Part shown: positions 1,028-53,868 of the stretch, in pieces
Position numbering within the stretch: position 1 is the first letter of the stretch
How the letters are laid out: every line of letters begins with the position of its first letter
Assembly: GCF_029227915.1 (NCBI RefSeq)
Contig: NC_079882.1
Coordinates: 29,872,001 to 29,936,000, forward strand
Length of the DNA: 64,000 bases
Reading direction: 5' to 3'
DNA from: Hydractinia symbiolongicarpus
Taxonomy: Eukaryota; Cnidaria; Hydrozoa; Anthoathecata; Hydractiniidae
Position numbers and translations under genes: made by a program
The notes under the pieces: model-generated
What the model was told of the DNA's origin: nothing
What the model saw: the letters and a program-made list of their open reading frames with translations, nothing else
Database searches by the model: none

Positions 1028-2377
<1,350 letters not shown>

Positions 2378-32790: not shown

Positions 32791-33300
32791 TATTTTCTTC
32801 TTGTCAAACAACCACAGGCATTAAAAAAATTAAAAAAAATTCTGATAACCCAAATTTTTGTCAATATTATCCCATACAAATGCGGCAAAAAATATGTCGG
32901 GAAGATGAAGTTGAAAATCGCTACCCGCTTCGACAACACAAAGACACCATCATTAAAAAAAAGTGGAGCGCATCAGGAGTTTCATTTCACTCTAGTTCTT
33001 GTAATGCTGGTTATGATTGGGACACTGCGAAAATGCTAAAACAAGAATTTAATAAATTTGATCGTAAGGTACGGGAAGCATTGGAAATACAGTTCCAGGA
33101 CACGTCACCGCGTAGTGAACATGGTCTTAATCTAGACTATGGTCAGTATGTGACGAGGAAATTATGGACTCCAATGTTCGCGTTCTTAAACGGAAGTCGC
33201 TGCAGTGACGTCGATTTGATGTCAATGTAATGACAACCGTTAAAATTTTTTGGATAGTCTGATGAAGACCTCCAATACGGAGGTCGAAATGTTACCATAA
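32791..33300 (+). pseudogene. Penelope-like element 3' fragment (GIY-YIG endonuclease)
   Basis: One frame gives the GIY-YIG core (IPYKCGKKYVGKMKLKIATR, 32870-32930). After a one-frame shift, the downstream part follows: GYDWDTAKMLKQEFNKFDRK, then REALEIQF, ending at TAA 33228-33230. The 3' tail (gaagacctccaatacggagg, then tcgaaatgtta) has the short inverted repeat typical of Penelope 3' ends. The frameshift and the absence of RT show a 5'-truncated copy. It lies just upstream of the HEPN gene's first coding exon. Confidence 0.82.
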
Positions 33301-33407
33301 AAAAATATATATGCTGAACGACCATGTATATGTTTCTTTAAAGTATTAACATACGTTCACATGAACATGTTATTTAAAGAGTTAATATCTTATTTGTTTA
33401 GGTGGTT

Positions 33408-36400
33408 ATGGAAACCAAAACTAGGCTTCTTGCTGCAACTACAATTTTTGAAAAAGCGCTACACAAGTTACTAAAAATGATGTCCGAAAACCACTCTGAT
33501 GCAACATCAAAGGATCCTAATGTGGCTCTTTCTGAAATTTTATTACTTCATAAAAAATATTTGGATGATCTATTGTGCAAACAGAAAAATGGTGAATGTA
33601 AAAAAAAAATTTATGACAATAATAATGTATTAAAGTCGACTATTTTAATTGATGACTTTGATATGACTCTAACTCATGGCATTATAACATCGATACCTGG
33701 CTTTTTAACATACACAAAGAACAAATCAAAGAACCAATGTTCTTCCGGTCACAATAAGAAGTGCTGTGGTAAATGTGAACACAAGTGTATCATATGTAAG
33801 AAAATTAAATGTAAGGAGAAATGCTGTAATATGCAAAACTGTAACCATGAATGCAGAAGTTGTAAAAAAACAAGATGGTCATGTCGAGACAGAGCCAACA
33901 TTTGCTGTAACAAATGTAAACTTTGTTATGAATGCTCAGAATCTAAAAGTAACCCTTGTCCACGTTTTAAGCTGAACAATGCCGTGACAAAATCAATCTT
34001 ACTTCGAAACGTTGTATGTCACTCATCAGAAAAAAAGTTTGAAGACTTCGAATCAGGCCAGTGCTTGTTCTCCAACTTTCAATCATTCACCAATTGGGAA
34101 TCACTGTCACATCATCTTAAAGCATTGCTGGAAGATATAATTAATATAATGACTGATGCAAAATATTTTTGTCCTCCTTTGCCTGATACTGTAGAAAAAT
34201 GGTCATTTTTGGTGGATCTTAATCATGCATGTGACGACCCTCTTGTTAAAGTAAATGAATTGTTTAGCACCTTACCTTCTAAATCAGTGTTACCCGAAAA
34301 TGAAGGTACGGTTTATCTTGGTTTTAAATCATTTATTATCATTAGTGTTTTTTTACCCAGATAAACATTCGTGAAAGAAAGTGTCTTTTGCCAAACTTTG
34401 TCTTGCAAAACTTTTGACAATAACCAAAAAATTTATCTAGTGCAAGCATTGTAAATTTTCATTCGCAAATGTATAGTCACTAAGTCCCATTTAAAAACTG
34501 AAAAATGTATTTACACAGAATTAGAAAAAAATAAGACAATAAGATTAAAGGGGACCAAAGGTATAAAATGATGTTGACCTTATATTATAGCTTAAAAAGT
34601 TAGTTTACAAGTTTTTTGAATTTTTTAAAAAGCTCTTTTCGTTCTCAAGATATTTACATTTAAAGAAATTCAGATTTAATTATGCTGCATAAATTATGAT
34701 TTCGTCTATATTATAATACCCGTATGCGTCTGTCTGTCACGCAAAATGGTAACCGCAGTAGCGAGACATACGAATTGCGGTGAATAAAGGACGGGTGTAC
34801 CGTGCACTTTTCCACGGGCCACCGACTAGTATTTAAGTAATAGCAAATTTTGACATTTTCTGTCTTCAGTAATTTTAGACCTGTTGAGGGATGTGCATTC
34901 AAAGTAAAGCAATGCTTAGATCTTATAAAGGTGAATTGGTTAACATAATTTTTTTTCCAAAATGACACTTGTTTGCTCGTCCCAGTCTCTTAATTTTTTG
35001 CTGACGACCCCATAATTTTGCTAGAGCAAAGGCAGACAGTTAAGCTCCCAGAAATGAGTGATATTAGTTATGTTATCATTCATTTTAATTGGAAGAAAAC
35101 CTCAACGTGAAAAAAGGGCAGGGTATTCTAACTCCTTTAAAAGCATTTGAAATATATTAGGCACAAATCCCAATTAAATTCAGCACTACTCCCAATCTAG
35201 AAATTTGGTGACACCAGCAATGTCCTGTATTTTCAAAAGTGATTATTAATTTGTTGCCACTATTGTGTAGGGCTTTAAACACTGTTTAAATTGATGTATA
35301 GGATCATGTGCTTGCAACGAACGGTCTAAAAAATACTACGGTTTATGATTTTGCATTTGTTGTTGTTAAGGGTGGGTTGGACAATCTCCGGGCCATAGTA
35401 GCCTTACTAACTCCTTTGACGTCAGTCAATATTTTTGACCTACCTTTAAAGGATGAAATACTCTATATTGAATTAATTTATACGTTTTGTTTAATATTTT
35501 TTTTTATTTCGCTGTAAAAGCAATTGAAATTGTTCTCTTAAAGAAATTTGCCATGTAATTTATCACTCAATAAAAAAAGAAAAAGATTGTAATTGGTTTA
35601 AATTGTGTGAAACTAGACAACGTTTCTTATCGAAATAATCTTTAAAAGGGAAAAACACTGAAAGAACTAGCGAAAATAATTGAGATAAAATTTCTCCTTA
35701 TTCGGTGTTTTTGATTTCATAAGAGCTGCTATTAGAAAGAGCATTTTTTTTAGTTTTATAACAGTTCTAATAAAAAATTGTGAAAATTATATCCACGGAA
35801 AAGCCATTCCATTGCAATGCTGATCAGGATAATATGTAATTTTAACTCATACTTGTAGGCAAAATAAAGCTTTGTCTAACTTTTGTCCTTGCATAATTTT
35901 TCTCGGTATCTTAAGGGTACAAATTATTTGAAATTTTCGCTAAGTAAATCTGTGATCTTTAATGTCACTTTCCTTTTAAAAGAATCTTCTATCCAGCCTT
36001 AAGATTAAAGATCACAAGTTTAAGCGTATAAACACACCAATACACGTTAGATAAATTAATATTCTTTTTGAAAAGAAATTGTATATGAACAGGTCAGTGT
36101 TTTCCAAAGTACGTTTTTAAAATCTATCAAGGAAATGCAACGTTTTTGTTTTTACCAAAATACATGAGCTTACACACCTTTTGCCATGTCTGGCGAAGTG
36201 AATTTATTCACGGGACTTACAGTTACAAATAATGCAAAAAATGTTGTCATATAACCGCTAGTTTTAAAGTTGGTTGCTCAAGTAGTAATTGTGCCTGTTC
36301 CTATATCAGATTTTCACAGTGTCAATGCTCACAGCGGACTTGCACATCAATAGAGAAGTAACCAGCATGGTTAGAATGTTGGTATTCTTATAAAAAGAAA

Positions 36401-39400
36401 GCGTGCAAAGCATGAATTTTTTTCTCATTATTTCGAGCACAGAAGTTGCACTTTCGCAACATCTTAGCTGAAAACTATTGTTGAGTTGATGGTTTTTCAA
36501 CTTTGAAAATCCCCTAAAAATACTGTTGTGTCATTTTTTTCCTACCGATTTTAGTCTCTATAATAATAGTTGTATTCTGTCTGTCTATGTGCGATTTCAA
36601 AGTCGTGTTATTGACAAACGAAATTACAAATGTGATATATTTTTTGTGACCTCCGGAAAAAATCACTAATACAGGAGTAACACTTAAAAGCGAAAACATG
36701 ATTCCCATAATACTTTAATTGAAGAAACTTTTAGGATCCTGAAAAATCGCTGTATTTAAATAAACATTCGCAAATTCGCAAACTGATTTTGTGGTTGATA
36801 AATTTTCGAATTTCGCGCTGAGAAAAAAATTATGTTTGAGACGGATGTTTTACACAAGCAATATAGATACTTTTTGTTCCGTTTTACCTAATGATTATCT
36901 CAATCCTTTGTTTTTAAGCTAGTTGATGACGTCATTTGCATAGTTAGCGTAACGTTTAAGACGTATCTCGAGAACCAATAAAGATTTTCAATATAATAAC
37001 GTTTCCTAGAAAGATTTTTAAGGTCTTTCATGTGAACCCAGGTTTCATATAAGTTAACTTTAAAATCGATTGTCTTTTATACGGGCTTAAAGCTAATTCC
37101 GATTATTATATACTCTTATCTTTGTGACGTTTCTCATTAATTTTTCTCAATAATTTATTATTTTTACTTTCGTGCACGGAGAACATTGCTAATGTGAGAA
37201 CTTAACGGAATGAAGGTTTATAGTTACTGAGATCTTATTGTTTACCTTTTAGATGGGCCACCACCGAAACCATTGTAAGTAATATATACATTACTTTTTA
37301 TATTATTTGGTGAGTTTCAACCTATGTATATTCTTCTTGGATTTTACAACTCTGAGAAAAGAAATTTTCTGGCTAAACTTAACAACCATTATTGCTCAGT
37401 CATTACTCAAAGCATTTTACTTGAAATTTTATTGATGTTGTTTATTTATAACTATACCTGTCATTTTTTTTATACGTAATGGATTTCTAACAGTGCATTC
37501 GGAACGTGTACTGGGTCATTGTAAGTTGCGGCGAAAACGCTGCAAAGGTTCTTTAAGATTAAAAAAAGTGTATATGTATGTGTTTCCTACCATGACAGAT
37601 TAGGACCACTCTATCTTTAGAACCACTCTATCTTATTTCATCCGTCGCGACTGAATATAAATTACTGCCTGTTTTGAGCAAGCGGCTGCGTGTGAGCCAC
37701 ATGTTGAAGACTAGTGACTGTGTGAGTTAAACAATCTGGTGCTGCTTATACATAACAAAGTCTGTGTTTTATTCCATACGACATAAGGGCTCCTCAATTT
37801 TTAATCCGGTGGCCGCTAAGAAAACGTGGTCGCTTGCTTAAATAAGCGGCTGCTTGTTTCTGTTTTTGGCAGCCGCACGTTCGAAGTGGGTGGCTGCTTG
37901 TTTCAATAGTCAATTGGATAATGGTAAAAACATGCATGTTTATTTACTCCTCAACCTTCAAGATGGCAACCAGCGAAGAGTCGTAAATGAAGGTAATAAT
38001 ATTTGTAAATATATTCGGGTATATGCTGGTATAATACAATTTTATGGCATAAATTTTTATCCGATGTTGTATTTTTTTCTAGATTCGATCATTTTTACAT
38101 GCACATTTATGGATTAACTTTTACCAACTTTTATTGCAAATAAAGATGATGATAAGATTGCACATATGTGCATTTAAAATAAACTTTGGGAAATGGTTTT
38201 ATTGTATGGTGATCTGTTGTCGCTTGAAAGATATTTCTAAATTTACCTGTTAACGAAATACACGTAACTGGAGAAGGTAGAAAAATCAAGAAAGAGCTGA
38301 AGTATTGAAGCAGAATTTGAAACTAACACACATGTTGACTAAACCCATGAAAAAAAAAACAGTAATTATCAAAACCAGTTATCACATTAACTTTAGTATA
38401 AAATATTTTGAAAAAAAGTATACTCTCTAACTTCAAGTGATTGTTATTTTTCACTAGAACAGAAACCATTTCACCAATTAAATTCGACAAAAAATTTGAG
38501 ATTCACTTCAAAGAGAGAAATCTTCCCAAAGTCTCTACTTGCGGTTTAAATGTTTTGTTATCCATGCAGAACATGACAGGTAAATTGAGAATAGCTACTA
38601 TTTTTATGGCTGGCTTTGGAAGTATTAAATGTATTTACTGCTGACTTTATGAACGAAAGTTTTATATTTTGTTCACTTTTTATATAATTTGTTAGCGTTT
38701 TTTACATTTTGTTAGCTTTTTTTAAAAGTCTCTTTTTAACTTGATTTTGATGGTATCTTTTGTTAGATTTTAAATACACAGGCTCACAGTATACTGCCGG
38801 CACATATCAAAATAATTACATAATCCATATGCGGGCGCAGAAAAGGCAGTAACGAATGTAAACAAACAACATAGAAATAGAGCGCCTAGCTTGTTTTCAC
38901 CTTGGAAATCACGAAAACCGCCCAACTAAGGTTAGTGGGAGCTGTTAGCACATGTATACTTCAGTTTTGGATAAAATCATGAAACTTTTCACAAATACTC
39001 TCACAAGGAAAAGAATCTTTTAGGAAGACACGCTCAAAGGTCACGTAATTGCTGACATCAGCATTTTGTATCTTTGTAGGGAAAATGTTTTAAACTTGGA
39101 CATGTGATATAGCAATCGATAGGAAATTTAGTGGTGATTAAGTTTGAAATAAGAACCATCGGTTGAAAATGGCCTGGAAACGAATTTTATACAAGATAAG
39201 TCATGTAGTCGTCCAGATTTTTTTACAAAAATATAACAAGGAAAATTTATGTTAGCAACAATAAATCAACATATCGAAACCAACTCATACTCATCAATAT
39301 CTCAACTACACATCTAATAATCAAATGTCCTGCGAAGAAAGTTCAGTGTCCTCATTACTGGACAGAGCAGTCGATGTAGTCAGGGGGAGAATGACCGAAA

Positions 39401-41286
39401 GAGTTATCTCATAAAAACAATGCCTTACTTACAAATGGGTACTCGAGACAAACCATTAAAAAGGTCGAAGGCAAAATCAGGAACAGAACTGATAAGAACG
39501 GTGTAGGAGAGGATGCAGAAGATGAGCTAGAAATCACGTGTAAGGATTGTAAAGATGTTTATGTCGGTGGGACAAAACTAATGCGCAAACAATGTGTGCA
39601 AGAGCACAAAGGAGCCGTAAGCAACGCAGATACAGACAAAAATGAGATTGCGAACCATAGCTGGAAGAATGACCATATTATTGACTGGGACAGAAATACT
39701 TATAGCAATAGTTTTTCCTATCAAATTCCAAGATATAGTTACCTGCACTTCCGAGAGCGAATATTTAGAAAAAGTGCAAAATGGTTCAAGACAAACGTAA
39801 CAGAAAGCGAACTTTTAGAAAAAAGAAAGATTTTAGAAAAAAGAGTTAATTAGTTTAATTGCTGTTGTCTGATTGGTTCCTCTAATTATCTCCACAACTA
39901 ATAAGTAGCCAAAAATAATTATGATCATTGCCCGTTGATAGTAGTTATAGACATGAGGGTACGAGGCCATTTCTAGCAATACTAGAACTTGCCTCACACC
40001 CTCATGTCTATGACTATGTGTACATCCTTCATATGTAAAACTGTCCTTGTACCACCATGTTGTGTTTTAGGTTGTTACGTTTCACGTGTGGCCATTTATA
40101 TGAAAAGTGCTATTTTTTGCTGTTTGGAAGGGTCTGTAAGGGTATGTTTATGGTGTTGCAGAGGGTCAGGAAGGTTTTATTTTTTCAGCCTGTGTAATAA
40201 TACGTTTGCCATTGGATGGGGTTATTTGGTGGCAAAATGTCCATACGCATAACTGTTTTTACCATCCCCTAGGATATATCTTTTGTCATCAAAACAACTG
40301 AGTATTATTTTGTTTATCTCATAACTTTTTAACATATGATTTTGACTTCTGATGGTTTTCATTTTATGGCATAATTGTTTGTTTTTGAATAATACATTCC
40401 TATAGTCTTCATGTTTGATTATATTTTTTCGATGTTTATCACAAATAGCTCTGGGTACTAGAATGTTTATTCTGCAAACTGTTTAATAAGCGCTTGTTAG
40501 CCAAATAATCGTTTAGTCAATATGGGAACACAAAGTAAATAGTTTAAAAAAAGGGAAACAGAAACATGCAATTATGTAGGGAAAACCTTAGGTTTTTTTT
40601 TGTAATGTTTTCTATAGAAACAAACCATTATCCAAAAGTGAAAAAGCCCTGGGTACATTCAAATTGCTAAACTTCCTAGTACTGTCGAGTATAATATTTC
40701 GCTTGCGGAAATAGGGAAACTGTTGCCGCTCCGCAACCCTCTATATATTGATGTAGCTATAATTTATCTGTGTGTAACAAAAATAAGGCGTATGCAGCGC
40801 ATAAGAACAACCGATGGTCGCTGCTTTGTTTTCCATCTTTGTTTTTAAAATTGAGAAAGCAGTGGAAATACCTGATCAAGAGAAACAAGGTAAAAATCAA
40901 TTTACAAACTTTAAAAGTAGCAAACGTGTTTTTTTTTATTTGCGATTACGCTCTCTTTCGATTTTGTCAGTGGAAAACAGACATACATATTTAATCCCGT
41001 TTGTAAGAAGTGTTTATAATGCAACTATGTCATCGAATTTCGAAGCTAGAACGTTTCTAAGTTCGACAAGATATTTAAATTGTAACGAAAATACGTTGCA
41101 AGATTTTAAAATGTGTAGTGAAAATGCACTAAAAACCTATTTAAATCTTAAGTCAACAGAGGTAGATTTTAAAAATTTGGTGTGCAGGTTTGTTTTACTC
41201 AAGTGTTGAATATCTTGAGGGGTGAAGGGTAAAATACCTTTTTTTGCAGAGCTTTCTCAGCAATCGACAAAAGTAGGGAAGATTAA
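33408..41286 (+). CDS. HEPN-like protein with Cys-rich insert and LPxxSTC module (8-exon model)
   Basis: The proposed exons are 33408-34305, 37253-37274, 37494-37520, 37910-37992, 38463-38579, 40863-40889, 40971-41187 and 41250-41286. All have AG/GT borders and agree in phase, giving 475 residues. An acceptor just before 33402 suggests a 5' non-coding exon. Residues about 80-95 (ILIDDFDMTLTHGIITSIPG) and 185-245 look like the two halves of a HEPN domain of the DZIP3-like kind. The second half has the R-N-V-V-C-H motif at residues 200-205 (34005-34022), which fits the R-x4-6-H signature of HEPN RNases. Between the halves is a segment with 19 Cys (33735-33955), probably zinc-binding. Exon 5 encodes FEIHFKERNLPKVSTCGLNV, resembling the end of HECT-like domains around the catalytic Cys. 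Exon 7 can alternatively join 44401 (see findings). The domain calls are by eye. The small exons 2, 3 and 6 are the least certain. Confidence 0.6.
34306..37252. other. Large first intron of the HEPN gene
   Basis: Contains a 125-base Helitron deletion derivative (34705-34829), Helitron interior relics near 35220-35420, and a possible Helitron 5' end near 36554. No protein-coding exon is recognised, but small ones would be missed. Confidence 0.5.
34705..34829 (+). mobile_element. Helitron deletion derivative, 125 bp
   Basis: Starts TCTATATTATAATACCCG with tgtctgtctgtcac and ends cttttccacgggcc, a short spacer, CTAG, then T. Both termini match the 557-base family, while almost the whole interior is missing. 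Confidence 0.7.
39326..39855 (+). pseudogene. Penelope-like element 3' fragment inside an intron
   Basis: The frame reads SSLLDRAVDVVRGRM, then a shifted frame LLTNGYSRQTIKKVEGK, then the GIY-YIG region (ITCKDCKDVYVGGTK, 39529-39574, followed by EHKGAV). The His-rich part (NEIANHSWKNDHIIDWDRNT) follows, ending at TAG 39851-39853. It is 5'-truncated and frameshifted. It sits in the intron between exons 5 and 6 of the HEPN gene model. Confidence 0.8.
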
Positions 41287-43822
41287 TAGGGACGCTGAAA
41301 GGCGGGAGAAACTACACAGTTGTCGAGGTGGAAACCTACCCAATCTGTTAGATACCACAAACGGATAGCTGGCAGAACAAAAAAAAGCAGTGGTTTACGA
41401 AAATTGTCATCATTTTATTTCGAGATTTATTTTAAAAAATTACAAAAACCAGATAGCTTGATAAGAAGATTTCCGGCCAAGGAAATTCAGCACAGGTAGA
41501 TCGATAAGATGAGATCAAGCCGTGATAGCGTTGCAAGACTTAACGTATGGATGGTACGCAATCTTGCTTATCATATGACAAAAAGAAATGTTGGTGTTTC
41601 AAACGTTTTAAGAGTTTCCTTCGCTTTTTCAAAAAATATGGCAATATGTTCTGTACTAGGCAAATTTTTCGAAGCAATGACAAATACAGAACACCTTGGA
41701 TTTGAAATAACAAACTATTGGCGACCAAAATACTTAAAGATTTGATTTAATTTTGCTTTTTTGCTTACATCTTGCTTCCGCCATTAAAAAAATAATTACA
41801 CGCATTTTTTTTTAACACGATAGCAGTGTAGGTTCTGACCCGGGTTGACTTTTTCCATATGTTATGTATTTTTTTCAAACGGGTTGTCTCGCCAATCGGG
41901 CCAACACTGAGCCAACTCGCCTCATATAATCAGGCTCTTAGACATTGTTAGCAATAAGACAGTGCTAAATTCCCATATTTTTTGCAATGGCTATATCACT
42001 CTCAATAACATCGACGCCTTGGTTTAAGTAAGAAACGCATAGAGTCAATCTGCTTTAGGAGATAAATTTGATTGTCGAACATGGCGTGTGTTCCAAATCC
42101 GTGCAAATATATTGAACTCGCGTTGCAAAATTGGTAAGAAAACGAAGATTAAAATTTGTGCGTGCGTTTCCAAATGTGACTTGAACTAACCATTTCTCTC
42201 GATATCTTCGAAGAAGGTGATCAACCAAGTTAGCCTTAATTTTTTTTTAACCTTACCAGAATGGCTCAATCCTTTGATTGGGAGTGGAATTAGTGTATTG
42301 AAACTTATCATCACGGCCGGAGAGAAACACTTGAAATCTTCAACGTAAATGTTTTTACTGCCCCTGTCCATTCTCACTAATTTAGGAACAATTTTACAAA
42401 TTATGACTATTTTAATATAGAAATATACAATAATCAATAGGTCATTGTAAGTGGTTGCCACCTTCAGCCATAAAGTCTTCCGACTGAATCTATCTATAGC
42501 TCCGTGTATACAAAAGCCCCATTTCTTTAATTGGTCGTTAGGGCCCTAAGTTTGATAGATGCATCGTTTAATTACATTTTGGACCTTCGATAAAACGGTA
42601 TCATACATACGTTTGATAACTTCGGTTGTTATAACCAACTTTTCTGTTCTACGTTAACATCTCGTTCGAAACAAGTTTCGTCAGAAATGAAAGATCCCTT
42701 TTTTAACCCGAGATTTAGACGTTAATACTTGAATCGGCGAGTTGTTGTAGCTCTTTTGTGCACAGAATTCAACATGCTGCACAGCTTGTCAGATATGTTA
42801 TTGCTTTAATACGTGAGCAGTTCTTTATCGCTTTGATTAGAAGCGACACGTTCATGCAGTAAAGAATGCATCGCGATAGTTAAGATACGTTTAAAAAGGG
42901 TGTGTTTATAATCTAATGGATTATTTCACGGACCTGGTTTCATATTACACGACTAGAAGATAGCCAAGGACAATTTCAGACAAGCGACCGCCTCTTCTAA
43001 CATAGCGGCCTCCAGTTAATACGAGCGCCGCTGATTTCGATTTAAACTGGCGGGCGCCAGACTTAAACAAACAACCGCTAGTTTTAATACGCAGCCGCTT
43101 GTTGGAAACAAACGGTTGCTTATTTTTAAAACCGCGGCGTTTGATGTAAGATAGAGTTGACCTAATCACCCAAGTTAGATTCCTATGACCCGACCGATCA
43201 ATCTTTCTTTTTTCTTTAAACAGCCGAACCAAAACTTTCCCTCCCATTTATTTGTTTGAAACAATAGTCCTTTTAGATCATGTACAGATGTTTTCCAAAG
43301 TATTTACTTACTCTCTACTCGATCGTGCAACGTTCGAGACACCAAAATTCCTCGAAACGTTCGATTATTCAATGAAATCAATGCATTGCATTCCTTAGGG
43401 GCTGTTTATATGGAAATATTTCCTCCGTTAGCGGGGAAATATTTCAGCATGATATAATTTTTACTTTTTGTTCATATGGCATGGGCGAGAAAACTTTTCC
43501 TTGGGTGAGAAAATACCATGTGATACGTTTCTATTGTTTATTTTTGAAAATTATGCGGAATTGACATAAATTTATCCCGCCTACCGAGGAAACTTCTTCT
43601 TTTTCTCAAATGAACACAACTAAATTTTGTTAAGAGTTTTTTACCGAGGAAATATTTCCCATATAAACATCCCCTTATACCATAACGATTCGAATATATT
43701 TACTACAGAATTGAAGTTTGCTCACGAATTGATTTGTTGTTAAAGAAAAATCACCGACCGACTGACCGATCCTCCTTTTCTTAACTACTTTATTCGGAAA
43801 AACTGTCGCGAGAGAAACTTAA
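41287..43822. other. Gap between HEPN and NTPase/KH units
   Basis: No conserved exon is recognised and no AATAAA is seen in the first 450 bases after the TAA at 41284. Spaced GC-rich 'gcggc.gctt' motifs lie at 42985-43130. The open frames at 41509-41745 and 42945-43247 have no domain, and the second consists mainly of those motifs. Confidence 0.45.
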
Positions 43823-44302
43823 TTTCTTAACTCTTCCTTACTTGGCTCGCCCTCCCGATATAAAGAAGAGACAACATTAAAGCCTTTGCATGCTGGTTGG
43901 GTGATTGCCTTTTTCAACTACATAACATCATCCGATGGCAAAGATATCATCATTAATGGATGGAAAGCCGCTGGAATATACGACACCATTGTACTTGGAT
44001 TAAGTAAGCTACTGACGATTGATCCTTTCCATGATATTGATCCCTTGGTCGATCAAGAGCCTACCTTATTAGCTTTGAATCTGGACGCCGTTTGCAGAAT
44101 TGATGAAGAGGAGCGGAATGCATATAATCGAGTTACTGGCGAAGAAGACGATGACGAAATGCGTGGAAGCCGAAAGAAGACGAGACTAGAATGCGAAAAT
44201 TTGTTTAAAAAATTTTGCGAGTTTCCCCGAATAAAGTATATAATGAGAATCACGCATATACATTTTTTGTGCGTAAAATATCTTTTCTATCTTTTCTTTT
44301 AG
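43823..44302 (+). pseudogene. DDE (Tigger/pogo-like) transposase C-terminal relic, possibly exonised
   Basis: The frame is open from just after a TAA at 43820. It encodes KPLHAGWVIAFFNYITSSDG, then IIINGWKAAGI, then LLTIDPFHDIDPLV. This order is typical of the end of pogo/Tigger-type DDE transposases (last helix of the catalytic domain, the GWxxAGI block, then the DPF segment). The DDE residues and DNA-binding half are absent. The frame continues with an acidic run (EEDDDEMRGSRKK) past a possible donor at 44236. It may be only an intronic relic, or its 3' part may serve as the first coding exon of the NTPase/KH gene. Confidence 0.6.
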
Positions 44303-47300
44303 CATTAAAAAAAGTATTTCTTACAAATATATACTATATTTAAGATTCACCTGCTACATACTTTAACTCCCACTTTTTAACGCTTGCTATTGTTGTACAG
44401 GGTGTTAATAGAAAGGATTTCAAGCGAATCGTGTTTGCTGAAACTTCCATATGAAGAGGAAGTTACTGGCGTTGAAATGAAGATAGATTCAGGTGATTGG
44501 TGTGAACTTCAAAACTCTGAGTATTCTCAACCTTTTCCTGCCTGGTTAGTTGTTAAAAAAACCTTTCAAGAAAGTAAAGAGTATTGTTTCAAATGCTTGT
44601 TTGGTGATGGTGGAAGATTTTATAAAAGTGCGAACTTATTATTTGGTAAGGATATTTTTTATTTGTTGGAAGTCTTGAAAAGTGTACATTTCAGCTGTTT
44701 GAAACATTTTTTTCATAGCGTAAGGATGCTATGATTCGATTGACACTTAATCATCAGACATTTTTAAATAGAAATACTTGTTAAGTTAAGTAAACTAAAG
44801 TTTAGCCCCACTCGAGAAATACTCTCAAAATTCTGTAAAACATTCCTGAAAGGTCAAGGACAATTATAAAAGTTTAAAGATCATATATTTACTGGGCAAT
44901 GGACACTGTGCTTTTAGAACGTCATTTTGTGTAAAATAAATCATTATTCAGATTTTCCCTTTTGGAAATAATTTAAGCGCACTGAAAATTGTACTTGCTA
45001 GAAAGTGTAACCTTAAACTTCTGTTCTGTGAAATTTCTGGATAGCCTAATTACACCTTTTTATTTGTGTTCTTGTTACAGATGCCGACAATCATTTAAGC
45101 GTTTCACGAAACTGTGGTATCATATCACATGCAGACGGGACACCTGTATTGCGTGCTAGTAAAGCTATGGATGTATGTGGAGAGGTAAAGTATAAAGTAT
45201 CCAGTGGTGGAAGTTCTGTTGCTATGGTAAAAGAAAGGGAGGAATGGTTTAAACTCTGTGATTATTTTGTTTATCGTTACTATGGGTTGATGGAGCTTGT
45301 GCAAATTCCTTTTACCCTGCATCGAACTTCAGCGATAAGTAATGTTGTAAAAGTAATGGTTGAGTTGTGTAAAGCGAAGAAAAATAAACCACCTGGTTAT
45401 GTCATTACGCACTATGATGTTAAAAATCATTGTGAATTTCTGGGTTACGATTTGGAACAGCTTAGTGCTAAACTCGGTATACATTTCACTGAAGACGTGA
45501 AAAACAGAGTCCTTGCTTATGCACCTGCTGAAAATGTCATTTTTAACTTAAGGGTATTACAGGTAAACGACTCTGTTGCTATCCACGAAGGGATGAAGGT
45601 CTGTTGCAATGATGTGAAGTTATTATTATTTGCCAATGAGAAGAAGTTTTACGAAAGTCAGGTTGTTATAATCGGCTTAGTTGTTGTTCCAGAGTTAAGC
45701 CAAGAATCGAAGAATAATCCTATTTTGTGCAAGAAGTGCTACGAAACTAAGCTAATTGTGTCACAGAAGGAATTTACGGATGGAAAAGTGTTTAAAAAAT
45801 GGTGGAAAAAGTTTCTGCCCCAAGTTTTTAAGTTGAAAAATGCGTTTAAAGCTGATAGTGCACAAAATCTTAGCCTTCTTTCTAATATAATTGGATTCAT
45901 GGCAACCAAAAAGGTATACTTACCTATAACGGAATTCCCATCCTTGTCAGAAGATGTTCAAGAGCAGATGAAAACTATTCTGCTTACACCTGAACAACAA
46001 GAGCTACTCAATTTAAAAGATAAAAAAGTCATCCTATTTGGTTCGTTTGGATCAGGAAAGAGTATAATGGCTCATTTAAAGATTCGCCAACTTATAATAG
46101 AAGCAGCAGAGCCGACTTTCATCTTCTATGTTTGTTTTGAAAATGACAGCTTATTTCAATGCAAGGTAAAAGAATTTTTAGAGAAAGACGAGAAGAATGC
46201 TAATTTGACAAACAAGAATGCAAAGATAGAAGTATTGGATTTATCGAAGTTATCAGCTGAGCACAAAGCTAAAATGACCGTTTCTCTAATTTTAACTGAT
46301 ACCTTTTCAAAATATCAAAACGGTTGCCTACACTTCTTTTTTGATGAGTATAATGGTGAAGATTTAGATGAAAATGAAGCTTCTGATATTCAAACTATCC
46401 TGCGTGGGGAAGAGTTGCCGAGAATAAAGGATTCGGTCGTTTGGCTGATATCTCAAAGTATAGAGAAGCATAGAAATTACTGCGAAAAAAGAAGCAACGC
46501 AGTTGTTAATCATGGAAAGAATCAGTTTCGTTTGACAGGGATGAAGAAAGTAACATTGCATAAAACACTGAGAGCAACAAATGCCATCAATGAAGTAGTG
46601 AAGGTCTGTATTGAGCGAATAGAAAAATCGCCAAACGAATTTCCTCATCGTGTTACACCTGCTAGAGTGACGGTAAATCGTAAGCCTACCCTTGACGAAA
46701 AAGAATTAACCATAAGTGACACAACACGATCTTCAAAACAAGAAATAAGTCCTTCGGATGACCGAAGGCTACAGTTGGAGGAGCATAGTATTCGACCAGA
46801 CGAAGAAGAAAGTAGTCTTGGTTCTGTATGCATGGAATTAGATCAAAGCGTTGATTTGGAATTTCAGAGGCAAAATGAAGATCAAGATGTGGACCAATGC
46901 TTCAAATTGATCTATGATGCTAACAGTAAAGAACAGTGCAATGAAGTAACGAGAACTGAATTCCATTTTCATGGTGGCAATGCTATCGGTCATAATATTG
47001 GTGGCAGTAAACCAACTTACATGAACATTTCGAATATTTGGAATTTAGTACCAGAAGCTTGTACAGACTTGGAATCTAAATACTATTCGTGTAGCATATG
47101 TATAGCAATGGTGTTGGAGAAGATGCATGGTGCGTGTAACTCATTTTTAGAAGGCATCACCGTATTATGCAGTGATGCTCATGCTGTCAATATCATGGAA
47201 GGTGTGGCAACTTTGTTAGACGAGGAGTTTATCCGTTATACCCCTTCCTTAGATTCAGATAGTAGCAACAAGATAAAAGAAGATATATTAGATATGCAGC

Positions 47301-50300
47301 AGTCGGAAGGTTGTGTATTACTGACAGACTGCAAAGGTTTCAGAGGAATGGAAACCGAAAAAATGATTGTATTTGTCGACCAGTCGGATACATTTTTAAA
47401 GCAAAATCTTGTAGAGGCTTTAGGTAGGTGTACGAACGACCTTATGATTATCCAGTACAACCCACCAAATCTACCTATTACTACAGACGAGACTGTTGCG
47501 GAAATTGTAAAAGAATGGAAGAGTCAGGACTTGGTTAGAATTATCGAATTAAGGAAATGTGGTTGTTATTTAAAAGAAAAAGAACTGTGCGATTTAGATT
47601 TAGAATGTGATATCTATGGTTTTCACTATGGCGAGTGGTATGAAGAAGAGAAACAACAATTGAGAAACCACGAAAGTTTAAAAGATGAGGAATACGATGT
47701 TGAGGAACTTCGCCAGGCCCTAGAGAGGTTTGTTTTGTTTTTCTTAAAATGTTATTTCATTACTTTTCTTGAACACTTACTTTTATGCAGTACGTACGTA
47801 CTAAATACGTATTACTACAGAACCATTTTATGTCTCTTTATGTGATAATGTGTCTACCTAAAGCAAATTAATTTTCAAAGATTTTAGCCCAGGCTTTATT
47901 TCACACTGATCAGCTAAAATATGTTTTTTTTTACTGTATACAAAATACAAAGACTTGAAAAACGTAAACATAAGTCTCTTTAATAAAATTTCGTTGAGAG
48001 GGATCATGTCGCAAAAAAAAATTCTAAAAAAATTTGTATTTCGCATCAATAATTCATTTTGCGTTATAATTCGCCAGCCGTCAAACCGATTTTACAAATA
48101 ATTAATATAAAACATTTTTACTTAGGCGTTATAGCTTAGTTTGCTAAGGCGTCATAATGTGAACCCAAAGGCCGTGGGTTCGAACGTACCTGAAGGCAGT
48201 TTTTCGAAATAAAAAAATTGCTGACAAAAAGCTCGTTCTTAAGGAGTTGGAAAGCAATACTGTAAATGACGCATTAAGCGCCTGAGACGCTTATTTAAAA
48301 TTTCATCTAGACAGGGGGCGCTTATTTTTCAAAAAACAACAACAATGTTTTTAAACGTAATTTATTCTCATAACTTTTATGAATAAAAAATTATTCTCCT
48401 TTAAATTTTACGTTTGTAGCTAAAATTTTAAAATTAGTTTGTTTAAGATTTATACACAGCTAAAAAAGTTTATTTTATAAAAAGTTTAATATTCGGAAAT
48501 TGCAACTTGAGAATAATTTTAAAATTGAAGCTTATATTTAAGTTTTATAATCTAGAAAACAATATTAAATAAAAACTAAAAGCACAGATAATTACGTACA
48601 ACATACATATTGCAATTACAGAACACAATCCATTTAAAACAATTTTTTCAATCAAATGCAATAAGGATTTCAAAATTCAACATTGAAAAATTCTAAAGAA
48701 ATCATCTAAATATCTCTTTCGATGATAGAGAAGAATATTAAAACTATTGATATATACCAGCAAAATATTGACAGCGCATTTAAATGAACAAAAGACAGAA
48801 GACAGAAATAAATCCAAAGGAATTGATAGATAACTTTCTATCCTCCACAGCATACAAAATTATCATTTTTAACGCAAGAATCCCTTTAAGGATAAACGTA
48901 AAGAATGATTTTGTATTAGCTATATATATGCACGTATATAATAAACCAGCTTTAAGTTAACCCATTATTTATATCGTTAAATGATATTAAATGTTATCTC
49001 TTTTACGAAATAAAATCTTGTAAGATCTTTAAATATTAATCTGGAAAAAAAAGGAATTTTGAAGACGTCATTTGAATTTTGAAGACGTCAGCAACCCATC
49101 CGTACAAAAAATTTAGAACCTTTTCATATTGTGTAGAGCTTAAAACGCTGATCAAGAAAATGTATATGATTATGTGCTCTTGATGAGCGGTTAAATGTTT
49201 TATAAAAATCAAGAATAAACGTATATATAAACACAAGTTCGATTTTTTGGGGAAAAAACATTTTTCTTTTCTTAATATAAAAAAACATATTTTTTTAAGT
49301 TTAGAGATCACATCATCTTTACAGCACCCACGGGATGCAGCATAACCTTTTTAGTTAGCTTTGAGGCTAAAATACACGGTAAGTTTAAACGGACCGTTTA
49401 AATGTAAGATAAAAAAAACTTACCGTGTACACAGGAAAGATGTACTACTTTTTCGGTTTTATAAGTTTTTCGAAAAGTTAGACATGTTCAACTTTTGCTA
49501 AGTTTTTTTCGATTAAAATTAACAGCATGATTAGTGAGCTAATGTTTAAACTACAGTTTTAACCATATTTTTCGGTTTCTAATCACAAACAGTGCTCTTC
49601 GAATGTTTTCCCATCCATGCGCAGAAGATTTTTTTTCTGTTAGATCTTGTCTTCCAGAACTATTCAATAGTGCTTCGAAGTCACCATGTTTTTGTCGCTT
49701 CGCAAGCCATGGTTTAACGCATGCAATTCTCTTCTTCAGTTTTCTATTCCGCTTTTTTTCTTATCTATTATCCCTGTTGCTGCTATTAACCGCAATGGAA
49801 GATATGCGTGTTTTTTCTTTGGTATTCATTGTGAAAAGAAAGTGTTTAAAAAAACTTATACAATTTATCTTTACGTGTAGACAGGTATATTACCTGCAAC
49901 TAAACTTATAAGTTTTTTCTCACAACTACACCGTCCGTTTAAACTTATTTACCGTGTATTTTAGCCTTAAGGGTTTAAAAATTTTACTGACGCCATCAAA
50001 CTCCCGCCAAAACACAAAAAAAGGTGATTAAGAAAATGTATAGAATCATGTACTTTTGACAAACGGTTGCAGAGATATTGGGGTTTGAAGGTTTTTTGAT
50101 GACGTTGTCAACCTGTCTATTCCGAAACAGATTCGGGGACCCAGGTTTAGGAAACTTACCCAAATTGGTCCCAGGTGGTTCCTAGTTTGTAAGTGATTTT
50201 TCACCGCATGTGTATGCGGTGAAAAATCACTTACAAACACTTAATTTGGCCTCAAAATTTTAATTGTAATTCAATGGATTCAGCAATCTTTTTAAACGAA

Positions 50301-53300
50301 TTGACGTCAGTCTAAATGCATTGACGTCGCGCCGTAACGTCAGAAAATTTAACATTTGAGACATCAGTTTTTCGGTTCCATCAAAGGAAAATAAACACAT
50401 CCACCTTGCATGTCACAGACAAACGGACATACTCTGTATTATTGTATACGTTAGCTAGGTACTACCGATATAGTAAACAGTGCAGCTGGCTACAGCTCAT
50501 TAATTTTATGGCCACAAACTTTCAAAACATTTTTTATATTAAAGGCCTTTTGCCATATTGCACAGTCAGTAATATTCTGACAACTTTGCATTCATCGACA
50601 AAAAAGTTTCTTTGATGCTGTGTCGTTTTTTGCCTGCCATCTTTTAATCTTGCTTTTAACCATATTTGGTCCAGGTTTTTTCAAACATATGATGTCCCCC
50701 CCCCACTTTTAGGGGTCGTTTCGAGTAAAATCCAATATCTAAGGCTCTGAAAGGTAAAGGACCTAAAAATTTGGCATGCAGGTTTCTAATAGCTAAATAT
50801 CGAAACTAAGTAAGTAATATAGCCATGCAACATTGCGTTAAGGAGTTATTAAAAAAACGTCAATAGAATCTACGTTAGCGTATTTTATTTCTGTTTTGTT
50901 CATTTGAGCTATTTATAGTCGCAGTATCAACACCCCAATCCATACTTTTTGTTAAACCGAACCAAAGTTCGTTACATAGGTCGTAGAATGTTGCAACGAC
51001 TCTCCCTTTCCTACTCTGACGTCCACCGTCGAATGTTTTTTATACTTGAGCGGATTTGTTTGACTTTTGATGCCACTCTGTCTCGTGAAAAGCAACATTT
51101 GTCATGAGGAATTGTGGAAATGAAGGTAAAATTTGCAGTAGTTTCTTGTACTTTTACGATAAACAATAGAGTCAAAAGGGCTCCGACATGGACGTTTTTG
51201 TTATCTTCGTACGTTATGAATAAAGGTATGTGATAAGTAGACGCACTGCGCAACTATATAGACAACCTGTTGATGAACTTTTGTTATGATAAATTTGCTA
51301 TTTTTTTTATTGGTATTTTCTTAAAAATGGATTGTAAAATACATTAAATATCAGTAAATTGAAAATTGATTTTGATGAGAAAACAAGGGCAACACGAGGA
51401 GCTATATTTGATAAGAAAGTTATGTTACTAACTTTAAGAAAGTAATGAATTACTTCAGAAAGATTTCAAAGTTGTCGCTTTGTTTCAACTGGATTTGTGT
51501 GCAATGATCTTGTGTTTCCATGCGAAATTTAAAAGAATATAGCTAGCTGGCTTGTTTAAAAAATTGGAAGATAAGTTCATCAGAAGGCTTGGTTTAATAG
51601 CATGGTATATGCTTATATCAAATAAATTTTGGATACGGATAGGGAACTTTTCTGTCATTTTTACTTATATTTGGATGTCCAATGTGATATTTAAGATGAC
51701 TTAGAAGTTGTTTTTTGTCCTCAGTAATCAAAAATGTATCCACCGCCACTGCTGACTTTTGTGTAAGTCACTATAGTCAAAAATTAACAGGCTGTTTTTT
51801 GTTGATTATCCTAGGATACTTTGTTTTGCAAGACTCGTATTTTTTTTATTTTTTTTTTTGCAAATTAAATATTTTCGGCAAAATGCGTTACGCAGAAAAT
51901 ATTTTTGACCACTAAGTTTAGCAAAATTCTTTCTAACTTCTGATACCAATTGATGTTGTTTTTCACAACTTTCTCCATTTTGGTTTTCGTCTGGCCGATA
52001 TAATCTGTTTCCATTTTTCTTAGAACATTGATAGATCCATATCAAAAGAGTGCAAGCGCTTCTGTTGGTAAGTTAATACTTTATTGTAGGTACTCAGCAA
52101 CTTGGACCACGTGTATAGTGCTTTTTACTGTATCCATATTATAACGCTCGTTGTCTGCCCCTAAGCCATAGATGGTAGCACATGCACCGACAGAAAAAAT
52201 ACCCATGGATTTTTCACGGGCTTACGACTATTAAAACCTGGTATTAGTTGTGGGCCCAAAAAGTGTCAGCCTATTGATACTATACTATTAAATAACAGCG
52301 TATTTTTAGAAGACGCAACTCCGACTACTCCAAATGAAGCTAAGGAAGAAGGCCTTTCTTCTGTTCGTATTAAGTATGTTTCAGTTGAAAATAATTTGGT
52401 TGGCGCCATTTTGGGACCAGGAGGAGCTCGTATTGCCACTTTAGCAAAGCGCTTCAATGTTCAATTGCGGATTATAGAGAGAACGGAAATAGAAATTCGT
52501 GGTCGTGACAATGATATAGCAAGAATAGAACAATGGTTAAGTGAGCTCAAGCGGAGGAAAAACGATGGTAGTCTGGAAAATGCATCGGAAATTGAGTCGT
52601 TTTTTTACGACGACTACCTGTCTAAGGGTTGGCTTGACGATGGTCTGCAATGGGCTAGTTTAGATTTCCTCCCTGATAAGTATTTTGGTCAGGTGATTGG
52701 GAAAAAGGGATCTAATAAAGCAAGGTTGAATAAAGAGTTCGCTATAAATTTGGTGGTCGATAAAAGAATCAATAAATTGCTCGTTAAAGGAACTCTGGAA
52801 TCCAAGAGACAAGTTAAGGGGTATGTAAAATACTTTTTATATCGACTTGAGAATTACTGGGAAACGCAGCTACAGTCTTTAAAAGAAATGTGTCTGCTAG
52901 GATTGGGTGATTCCGATATTGTAGAAATGGTTCAGAAGCGTAACTGCAAGAAATGTTGTCAACATTGTGAAATTAAGGTATTGGAGAAACCTCGAAACAT
53001 GAAGAAAGTGTTCGACAATATGCCAAAGGTGTATGAGACAATTAAGAATGTTCTAATTGATATCAAATCACGCTTAAGCAAAGCGGAACAAGCTGTATGT
53101 TGCGTCATGATCCATCATGGACGACTTCATCATAGCTCTGAACCTGGTTATTGGCCAGTGAAAGATATATCGAACAATAGCAAAATATCGTTTGAAAGAT
53201 TAAAAAGTTTTACAGAATTCAATGATTATTCATTGATAAGCACTGTTGTTCGATTTGATCTACGTATAGTAACACCGGAGCCAGTAGTTGAAATACGATA

Positions 53301-53868
53301 CAAAGTTTTTTGTAATCCTCAGGAAAAATCATTCATAACTTGCGAGGAAGCAGGAGCAAACAGTAAAAGATTTTACAAGTTTAGAGTTGGCCCAGGGTAT
53401 GTCTGCATTCAGGAACACTTGGTCCTCAAGACTGACATAATTAACCCCGTCACTAACTACAGCACGCGAGTAAATGTTCAAACATTTAAACCGGATAAAG
53501 AAAAGGAGAACATTATTTCAATACATGTCGAAGCCTTGAAAGATTTCTTCAAAAATATTAAACTATCTAGCGAGCCTGCCATGACAATTGTGTATGGCAA
53601 ACTACCCGAAGATTATTTTATTTGTTACAAGCGTCGAAGTGAACGAAAATCATATCACATTCCACCTTCAACTCTTTTACGTACATCGGATGAGTTTACC
53701 AGTGTTAAAGATGGCTTAAGTTGTGGAATCAGAGATAAAGATATGTTCTTGAATTTGCAAGTCTTAGACGCTGAGAATTGGGAAGTTGAGCAAGTATTAG
53801 AAGGTCTTCAGGAAGCGTTTCAATGCAGTGACGTGATTTTGTCGAGCCTTGGTGTTGAAAGCAGTTAA
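44159..53868 (+). CDS. P-loop NTPase (SF1-like) with tandem KH domains, 5-exon model
   Basis: The proposed exons are 44159-44235, 44401-44645, 45081-47727, 52024-52067 and 52310-53868. Phases agree throughout, giving 1,523 residues. Exons 2-5 are well supported by clean borders. The first exon, inside a transposase relic, is the weak point. Residues about 425-910 form an SF1-type NTPase: Walker A GSFGSGKS at 428-435, Walker B FFFDE with D529, a motif-V-like KGFRGMETEKM at 859, and a motif-VI-like EALGRC with R890. The nearest known layout I can name is the Schlafen/DUF2075 type of helicase domain. Exon 5 has two KH domains with GxxG loops GPGG (1040-1043) and GKKG (1135-1138). About 300 further residues of unknown fold follow. 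The likely role is ATP-dependent binding or remodelling of RNA in the cytoplasm. This is inference. Confidence 0.75.
48125..48200 (+). repeat. tRNA-like sequence, probably SINE head
   Basis: A box-A-like stretch (tatagcttagtttgctaagg) and a box-B-like stretch (gggttcgaacgtacc) are spaced as in a tRNA. The ends (ggcgtta and tacctga) do not pair into an acceptor stem, so a working tRNA gene is unlikely. Confidence 0.45.
49361..49970. mobile_element. TTAA-type MITE with 'ggctaaaatacacggtaag' ends
   Basis: The inverted terminal repeats read (TTaa)GGCTAAAATACACGGTAAG at both ends, with the adjoining tttaaacgg also inverted. It is inserted in a Helitron relic and encodes nothing. The 102-codon open frame inside (49603-49911) is chance. 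It is the same family as 55678-56089. Confidence 0.8.
50185..50238. repeat. Perfect hairpin, 25-bp arms, 4-base loop
   Basis: Arms gtttgtaagtgatttttcac continuing cgcat pair perfectly with their inverse across a gtgt loop. It interrupts the Helitron block that elsewhere reads 'cctagttaccc'. Confidence 0.95.
50651..50868 (+). mobile_element. Shortened piggyBac-like MITE of the 14.3-kb family
   Basis: Starts ttaaccatatttggtcc, a mutated version of the 14313 terminus. It then skips to a segment matching the 3' half of that element (taggggtcgtttcgagtaa, gcatgcaggtttctaatag). The right terminal repeat is lost. Confidence 0.7.
52133..52232 (+). mobile_element. Degenerate Helitron derivative
   Basis: The stretch from tccatattataacgctcg with tgtctg to catggatttttcacgggctt and cgactatt mirrors the short Helitron at 34705. 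It has CTAT in place of CTAG, so it is a mutated copy. It lies in the intron between exons 4 and 5 of the NTPase/KH gene. Confidence 0.5.

What the first reader, a model, noticed from the sequence alone, without database searches (positions are those of the whole stretch)
33408..53868. HEPN + SF1-like NTPase + tandem KH locus: candidate RNA-targeting defence protein
Within 20 kb on one strand lie a HEPN-like domain with an R-N-V-V-C-H motif, a P-loop NTPase with SF1-like motifs, and two KH domains. HEPN domains with R-x4-6-H are usually RNases in defence or RNA turnover. Schlafen-type SF1 domains act in antiviral tRNA or RNA control. KH domains bind RNA. I know no described animal protein with this set. 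The motifs are seen directly; the defence role is inference.
Basis: partly seen in the sequence, partly recalled or inferred. Interest (0 to 1): 0.9.

Follow-up and report, generated by a model that had tools for sequence, protein, structure and literature searches.

The report
HEPN–Schlafen-like NTPase–KH protein, Hydractinia
A colonial relative of jellyfish carries one very large protein that joins a probable RNA-cutting domain, a helicase-like motor related in fold to human Schlafen proteins and two RNA-gripping domains; it belongs to a larger, shuffling gene family that may be a new kind of RNA-sensing immune receptor, although its function is untested.

Summary
Confirmed, and extended. 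The window is Hydractinia symbiolongicarpus chromosome C8. NCBI already joins the NTPase and KH exons as an 'uncharacterized protein' (LOC130653583 isoform X2, 1518 aa) that lacks the HEPN exon. The HEPN exon splices in frame onto that gene (1804 aa), and a relative's 1808-aa protein from a 5793-nt, hence intronless, contig has exactly that junction: one gene, one protein. The NTPase exon folds as an SF1 helicase core; its best Foldseek matches are Schlafen 11/14 (3e-12). KH passes Pfam. HEPN was the weakest call: Pfam and fold search do not establish it, but profile comparison with DZIP3-type HEPNs does (E 1e-3, 0 of 100 shuffles; too weak with fewer sequences), helped by topology and position. 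Best reading: an NLR-like RNA-sensing, RNA-cutting family using a Schlafen-like SF1 NTPase instead of NACHT. RNase activity and the defence role are inference.

The parts
33402..34305 (+). Exon: ATG at 33408, HEPN domain (299 aa) with Cys/His-rich insert; donor GAAG|GTACGG, phase 1
   Evidence: paralogous exons L029, L030, L031; protein P0002
33711..33959 (+). Cys/His-rich insert (residues 102-184) between predicted helices 2 and 3; 16 Cys and 3 His invariant in 5 aligned sequences (15 Cys in the 4-sequence alignment); probable zinc-binding
   Evidence: residues 102-180 are under pLDDT 50 in the model
34005..34022 (+). RNVVCH, the predicted HEPN active-site motif (R200, N201, V203, H205 invariant in 5 of 5), at the C-terminal end of predicted helix 185-205
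34870..34930 (+). Alternative exon of NCBI isoform X2 (start MCIQ); if included after the HEPN exon it ends the HEPN frame after 311 aa
37253..37274 (+). 22-nt coding exon (DGPPPKP)
44401..44645 (+). Exon: small domain, beta-rich by eye, no Pfam match at E <= 1; a similar exon (by eye) stands in the C3 copies
45081..47727 (+). NTPase exon (882 aa): about 280 residues of unsettled fold, then an SF1/Schlafen-like helicase core
46040..46063 (+). Walker A GSFGSGKS
46343..46348 (+). Walker B DE
47324..47428 (+). Motifs V and VI (T..KGFRGME ... EALGR)
52024..52067 (+). 44-nt coding exon
52310..53868 (+). Last exon: two KH domains (first at 52378-52533) and a C-terminal domain of about 300 aa with no Pfam match over cut-off

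Best explanation
One gene encodes a 1804-aa protein: HEPN RNase with a zinc-type insert, a small linker domain, a Schlafen-like SF1 NTPase, two KH domains and a new C-terminal domain. Shown: the exon chain, the domain order, its presence in a relative's spliced sequence and in three tandem paralogues, and (by prediction) the SF1 fold. Well supported: HEPN homology with an intact RNxxxH site. Inferred: the KH/C-terminal half binds RNA; RNA binding drives ATP-dependent closing of the SF1 motor; this dimerises or frees the HEPN domain, which then cuts RNA. In outline it works like an NLR or RNase L, with the SF1 NTPase as the switch, and most likely acts against foreign or transposon RNA.
For: Junction seen in P0002; in-frame GT-AG exon chain; same order in three C3 paralogues with matching candidate intron phases; R, N and H of the HEPN site invariant in 5 of 5 aligned sequences and RNxxxH in 12 of 12 HEPNs compared; profile match of 6 insert-type HEPN cores to 6 DZIP3-type HEPNs, E 9.6e-4, score 29.1, 100 column shuffles mean 12.9, max 23.4, 0 of 100 reach it, and still 0 of 60 without L040 (E 0.0012) or without L036 (E 0.00027); SF1 motif residues conserved and Schlafen/UvrD fold; KH over cut-off; HEPN exon upstream of 8 of the 10 family NTPases read; module exchange among tandem copies; purifying selection, dN/dS 0.19-0.44 in the 11 of 18 pairs with finite dS. 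PMC3710099 passages: the CXorf38 family is HEPN with an inserted Zn ribbon, fused to NACHT and DEATH in animals, proposed for defence.
Against: No RNase, ATPase or expression data. Fold search with the HEPN model listed no HEPN chain, and only two of its five models passed pLDDT 60. Pfam matches of the HEPN cores stay below cut-off, and the window core itself gets none. Profile tests with only L032-L034 on the DZIP3 side were not significant (E 0.25 in 106-107; E 0.07, 2 of 60 shuffles reach it, in 145). The Pfam model most often hit by the NTPase family is NPHP3_N (8 of 11 members, best 1.4e-4), not a helicase. dN/dS shows constraint, not positive selection. In the first KH of two C3 copies the GXXG loop is altered.
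Confidence: 0.5

Rival explanations
1. Same protein, but its job is endogenous RNA metabolism (mRNA or tRNA turnover, translation control, as recalled for SLFN13/14), not defence.
For: SF1/Schlafen-like fold; KH domains; purifying selection.
Against: At least 19 NTPase loci in one genome, tandem copies that exchange modules and varying N-terminal exons fit a lineage-specific immune-type family better than a housekeeping gene.
Confidence: 0.27
2. The HEPN domain is catalytically dead or only a dimerisation module; the SF1/KH part is a remodelling or signalling ATPase.
For: Pfam matches below cut-off; inactive HEPN families are listed in PMC3710099 (passages).
Against: R, N and H are kept in 5 of 5 insert-type HEPNs aligned and RNxxxH in all 12 compared.
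Confidence: 0.15
3. Two genes: a HEPN gene and a separate NTPase-KH gene (NCBI isoform X2 starts downstream of the HEPN exon).
For: Isoform X2; the 34870-34930 exon would stop the HEPN frame after 311 aa.
Against: P0002 has the full-length protein with the HEPN exon joined; HEPN exons stand in the same place in the paralogues. X2 may be an additional isoform.
Confidence: 0.05
4. A DNA-directed protein (SLFN11/UvrD-like action at stressed replication forks).
Against: HEPN and KH point to RNA.
Confidence: 0.03

Closest known systems
Schlafen proteins with a helicase-like part (SLFN5, SLFN11, SLFN14)
CXorf38 / DZIP3-type HEPN proteins of animals, including cnidarian HEPN-NACHT proteins
   Same: HEPN with RNxxxH; Cys-rich insert as in CXorf38 ('Zn ribbon inserted into HEPN', PMC3710099, passages); HEPN combined with an NTPase, as the DZIP3-type HEPN with NACHT in cnidarians (PMC8260672, passages)
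   Different: NTPase is SF1, not NACHT; KH domains at the C-terminal side; DUF4559 model only 0.025 for one trimmed core, and the window exon was not hit in the genome scan
Bacterial HEPN-SF1 helicase fusions
   Same: PMC3710099 (passage) tells of HEPN fused to SF-I helicases in restriction-linked giant proteins
   Different: There with transglutaminase, Vsr nuclease and wHTH; no sequence link tested here
TRADD-N/DED-linked effectors of marine invertebrates
   Same: PMC8195603 (passages): expanded families, in cnidarians too, with HEPN, KH, Mov10 or RLR modules
   Different: Pfam found no TRADD-N or Death-type domain in P0002 or the window exons
RNase L
   Same: Recalled: sensor, nucleotide-binding middle part and a HEPN-type RNase in one chain
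   Different: Recalled: ankyrin repeats and kinase-like domain; different order

Membership tests
HEPN superfamily | Rx4-6H with a polar residue after R (as defined in PMC3710099) | tested here: met
   RNVVCH; R, N, V, H invariant in 5 of 5; RNxxxH in 12 of 12 (138)
HEPN superfamily | Four-helix up-down fold, insert between helices 2 and 3, motif at the end of helix 3 (PMC3710099) | tested here: met
   By prediction only: helices 2-27, 37-57 (two pieces), 63-68, 86-95, insert 102-180, 185-205 ending in the motif, 230-253 (mean pLDDT 65.8, core mostly 77-92; the other four models 60.9 to 34.5)
HEPN superfamily | Structural match to a solved HEPN | tested here: inconclusive
HEPN superfamily (DZIP3 type) | Significant profile similarity | tested here: met
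   hhalign 6 x 6 sequences: E 9.6e-4, score 29.1, 0 of 100 shuffles reach it, hhalign probability only 22%. Repeats: without L040 E 0.0012, without L036 E 0.00027, against L036/L037/L041 only E 0.014, each 0 of 60; against L032-L034 only E 0.07, 2 of 60. First, smaller test E 0.25. Pfam: a sub-cut-off HEPN model is the best hit for 4 of 6 cores (one of them a consensus), none for the window core
HEPN superfamily | RNase activity | not testable with these tools
   -
CXorf38 (DUF4559) | Zn ribbon inserted into HEPN | tested here: inconclusive
   A Cys/His cluster does stand between predicted helices 2 and 3; that it is a Zn ribbon, or binds zinc, was not tested
CXorf38 (DUF4559) | Match to the family model | tested here: inconclusive
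   E 0.025 for trimmed P0002 (27); window not among the 4 genome matches
SF1 helicase / Schlafen helicase-like domain | Walker A, Walker B, motif IV Arg, motifs V and VI with Arg, and fold | tested here: met
   in 13 members (59) Walker A, the Walker B Glu, motif IV Arg, motif V G.E and the motif VI Arg stay invariant
Schlafen family | N-terminal Schlafen core (AlbA-like) domain | tested here: inconclusive
   Structural alignments begin at model residue 1-20 (122) but Pfam shows no such hit in 11 members at E <= 1 (45); type I restriction HsdR also matches
KH type I | KH model over cut-off, GXXG | tested here: met
   KH_1 46 bits against 21.5; 6 of 6 family members hit KH_1 at E <= 1
NLR (NACHT/NB-ARC STAND) | NACHT or NB-ARC NTPase | tested here: not met
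   Fold is SF1 helicase; the window NTPase has no NACHT or NB-ARC hit at E <= 1; NACHT was hit in 1 of 11 members (2e-4) and the P-loop model NPHP3_N in 8 of 11 (best 1.4e-4; 0.026 for the window)

The most novel reading that the evidence does not exclude
Hydractinia has a large NLR-like receptor family, not found in the papers searched, in which a Schlafen-like SF1 NTPase replaces NACHT. Its N-terminal effector slot is filled by HEPN RNases (with or without a zinc-type insert) or other modules, its C-terminal sensor slot by KH or Fn3-like domains, and tandem members trade modules by recombination to make new RNA-triggered RNases.
Probability: 0.45. Interest if true: 0.85.

Novelty: new variant of a known kind. 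Interest (0 to 1): 0.7.

Why it matters
Cnidarians lack adaptive immunity, and their intracellular RNA defences are poorly mapped (recalled). A protein that carries RNA-binding, helicase-like motor and RNase-type domains in one chain, in a family that shuffles its parts, would be an animal parallel to bacterial HEPN-based defence and to RNase L, and would link Schlafen-type motors to HEPN nucleases. Hydractinia is a genetic model (recalled), so it is directly testable.

Tried and rejected
Chance juxtaposition of unrelated ORFs: rejected. Two separate genes: disfavoured, although isoform X2 stands. NACHT/STAND NTPase: rejected by predicted fold. Transposon-encoded helicase: not pursued beyond noting that transposon-like ORFs sit in the introns (by eye) while the gene's exons are conserved across paralogues.

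Led nowhere or negative: Pfam on the uncut HEPN exons (only Abi_2 at E 0.12 in one of four); PDB sequence searches with the HEPN exon and its profile (one chance-level chain each) and with the NTPase exon alone (none); profile comparison A10 vs A11 (106, 107, E 0.25); VIA-align of the HEPN model (120, no HEPN chain listed among the rows shown); Pfam on the L040 HEPN, uncut and trimmed (137, no HEPN model). Protein one search found only the gene's own NCBI model; one search found 4 proteins among 8000 scored candidates, two of them (P0003, P0004) distant NTPase relatives of unstated organism. The tRNA scan was empty. An idea that the first 280 residues of the NTPase exon are a dead PD-(D/E)XK-type nuclease (invariant N-x-R in the Hydractinia members, HsdR among the fold hits) is left open: the N and R are not kept in P0003/P0004 (125).

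Left undone: copy number of the 34870-34930 exon (127, 143 unanswered), PF18738 count in the genome (72, 98 unanswered), the Foldseek run for the HEPN model (113, 118, 124, 128, 131, 136, 141 not accepted).
Full report
Where it is. The window lies at G000:C8:29872001-29936000. The NTPase ORF is 99% identical over 95% of its length to NCBI LOC130653583 isoform X2 of Hydractinia symbiolongicarpus, 1518 aa, 'uncharacterized protein', Pfam KH only.

Gene structure. The X2 protein maps to exons 34870-34930, 37253-37274, 44401-44645, 45081-47727, 52024-52067 and 52310-53868; the translation of the joined exons equals the NCBI protein letter for letter (the script's boundaries are moved here by 0-2 bases to the GT-AG sites that give the same protein). 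That exon stands behind an AG at 33400-33401, has its ATG at 33408 and ends at 34305 in phase 1. It joins in frame to the 37253 exon, giving 1804 aa; if the 34870 exon is put between them, the frame stops after 311 aa.

One protein. A search with the 1804-aa protein, scored on residues 1-320, found 1 protein among 1110 candidates: P0002, 1808 aa, from a 5793-nt contig, 80% identical over that part. Its coding length leaves no room for the introns, so it is a spliced sequence (source label 'lgn', species not given; that it is a transcript assembly is inference). It reads ...LPEIE-DGPPPPKPL..., the predicted HEPN-exon/37253 junction, and is 91% identical to X2 over their shared part. The single-protein reading is therefore shown in a relative; in H. 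symbiolongicarpus itself it rests on frame, splice sites and that relative.

KH and C-terminus. Two KH_1 domains, 46 bits against a cut-off of 21.5; the profile's best PDB hits are KH structures of IGF2BP1 (1.4e-4) and, close behind, vigilin (2.9e-4). About 300 residues behind them are shared by six loci in the genome; Pfam shows no model there over its cut-off for the window exon.

HEPN. Pfam finds nothing in the uncut window exon. With the Cys insert cut out, HEPN models appear below cut-off in 5 of 6 queries, one of which was a consensus: HEPN_RiboL-PSP in 4 (E 0.012-0.17), Abi_2 in one of those 4 (0.10), HEPN_DZIP3 in the fifth (0.039); the window core gave none, and unrelated models appear at similar E-values. 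The model (four sequences, best pLDDT 65.8, core mostly 77-92; only two of five models passed 60) has helix 1, helix 2 in pieces, an unmodelled Cys-rich insert at 102-180, a long helix 185-205 that ends with RNVVCH, and a helix 230-253. That is the HEPN layout given in PMC3710099: insert between helices 2 and 3, motif at the end of helix 3 (passages). The same paper's table describes the CXorf38 family as 'Zn ribbon inserted into HEPN', with NACHT, DEATH and dsRBD among its partners (passages). VIA-align of the model listed no HEPN (inconclusive). A profile comparison with three DZIP3-type HEPNs of the same genome was not significant (E 0.25). After adding L040 to one side and L036, L037 and L041 to the other it was: E 9.6e-4, score 29.1 against 100 column shuffles with mean 12.9 and max 23.4. 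In all 12 sequences RNxxxH is present, with a short D-centred motif ([FLC]D..) about 30-45 residues before it. The second test was made after the first had failed, with more sequences. Repeats: without L040 E 0.0012, without L036 E 0.00027, against L036/L037/L041 only E 0.014 (0 of 60 shuffles each); against L032-L034 only E 0.07 (2 of 60). So HEPN homology is supported but depends on enough sequences.

Family. A genome search with P0002 gave 34 matches with only 26 of 197 candidates scored; they fall on 19 NTPase loci and 6 KH/C-terminal loci, both lower bounds. I read the DNA upstream of 10 of the 19 NTPase loci. Eight have a HEPN exon on the same strand: the window, three C3 copies (L029, L030, L031), L040 (insert type, blastp 1.5e-19 to the window exon in a four-sequence database), L037 (HEPN_DZIP3 6.6e-24), L041 (4.1e-20) and L036 (5e-5, below the cut-off). 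Two (L038, L039) have other exons instead, Death-like by eye but with no Pfam support. For L036, L037, L040 and L041 the fusion is inferred from order and strand only; for C3 it is inferred from order, strand and matching candidate intron phases (read by eye).

Evolution. The C3 genes A (L031/L016/L018), B (L030/L014/L013) and C (L029/L012/L015) are mosaics (100-column steps): over the HEPN part A and B are 71-86% alike, C 47-50% to either; over the first NTPase half A and C are 71-92% alike, B 27-64% to either; over the second half, KH and C-terminus B and C are 41-94% alike, A 12-63% to either. This points to exchange of segments between tandem genes. dN/dS is 0.19-0.44 in the 11 of 18 pairs with finite dS, several of them near saturation: the modules are constrained, hence probably functional.

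Mechanism. Shown: order, single chain in a relative. Shown by prediction: SF1 fold. Supported: HEPN with intact site. Inferred: KH/C-terminal RNA sensing, ATP-driven switch, HEPN cleavage, defence. The inference leans on HEPN-NTPase proteins being proposed as immune in animals (PMC3710099, PMC8260672, PMC8195603; passages). The HEPN-less isoform X2 could act as a regulator; this is untested.

Literature. Full-text searches for HEPN+DZIP3+cnidarian (4 papers), HEPN+Hydractinia, CXorf38+HEPN (1, 62), HEPN+KH domain+helicase+cnidaria, Hydractinia+Schlafen, HEPN+Schlafen+invertebrate (0, 139) and HEPN+coral+helicase+innate immun (4, 140) gave no listing whose title or abstract start names this architecture; I saw passages of three of these papers (PMC3710099, PMC8260672, PMC8195603) and listings of the rest. 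The library holds only open-licence papers. So novelty is 'not found here', not proven.

Verdict.

Noticed in passing
L029-L031, L012-L016, L018 (C3:27.66-27.72 Mb): Three tandem HEPN-NTPase-KH genes are mosaics of one another with about two exchange points.
   Followed up: yes
window 34870-34930: Alternative exon that makes a HEPN-less isoform (NCBI X2) or, behind the HEPN exon, a truncated HEPN; possible splice switch. Its copy number in the genome could not be checked.
   Followed up: partly
L017 (C7:6.66 Mb) and L019 (C7:11.15 Mb): Single-ORF proteins with several KH domains and the same new C-terminal domain; no NTPase match at these places.
   Followed up: partly
L039:1994-2572 and L038:3218-3646: Upstream of NTPase paralogues: similar exons by eye; the L039 one matches EcoEI_R_C (E 2.8e-4, below cut-off), a type I restriction R-subunit C-terminal family, and the L038 one NPH-II weakly (0.0089).
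   Followed up: partly
L034 (C2:35.90 Mb): DZIP3-type HEPN (2.6e-14) followed in one frame by an NB-ARC/STAND-type NTPase (NB-ARC 1.3e-4, just under its cut-off): a HEPN-NLR-like gene in the same genome.
   Followed up: no
L026 and L027 (C14:2.75-2.76 Mb): Two nearly identical neighbouring copies of an NTPase paralogue, by eye a recent duplication.
   Followed up: no
L022:126-410 and L026:692-997: Fn3-type exons downstream of NTPase paralogues (fn3 4.4e-5 and 7.2e-5, just under the cut-off), where the window gene has KH.
   Followed up: no
window 1028-2377 (-): Glutamate dehydrogenase ORF without stops (Pfam 4.6e-90).
   Followed up: no
window 18369-20167 (+): Reverse transcriptase ORF (RVT_1 2.2e-38) with an ORF before it that weakly matches PHD-type zinc fingers (0.0017, below cut-off); LINE-like remnant.
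   Followed up: no
window 39395-39853, 43823-44302, 32775-33230 (+): Transposon-like ORFs by eye (Penelope-like GIY-YIG and Tigger/pogo-like DDE) in and before the gene's introns; Pfam gives nothing.
   Followed up: no
L024:4382-5083: Short tandem repeat that translates to CNETATYIDELNLYS-like units, downstream of an NTPase paralogue.
   Followed up: no
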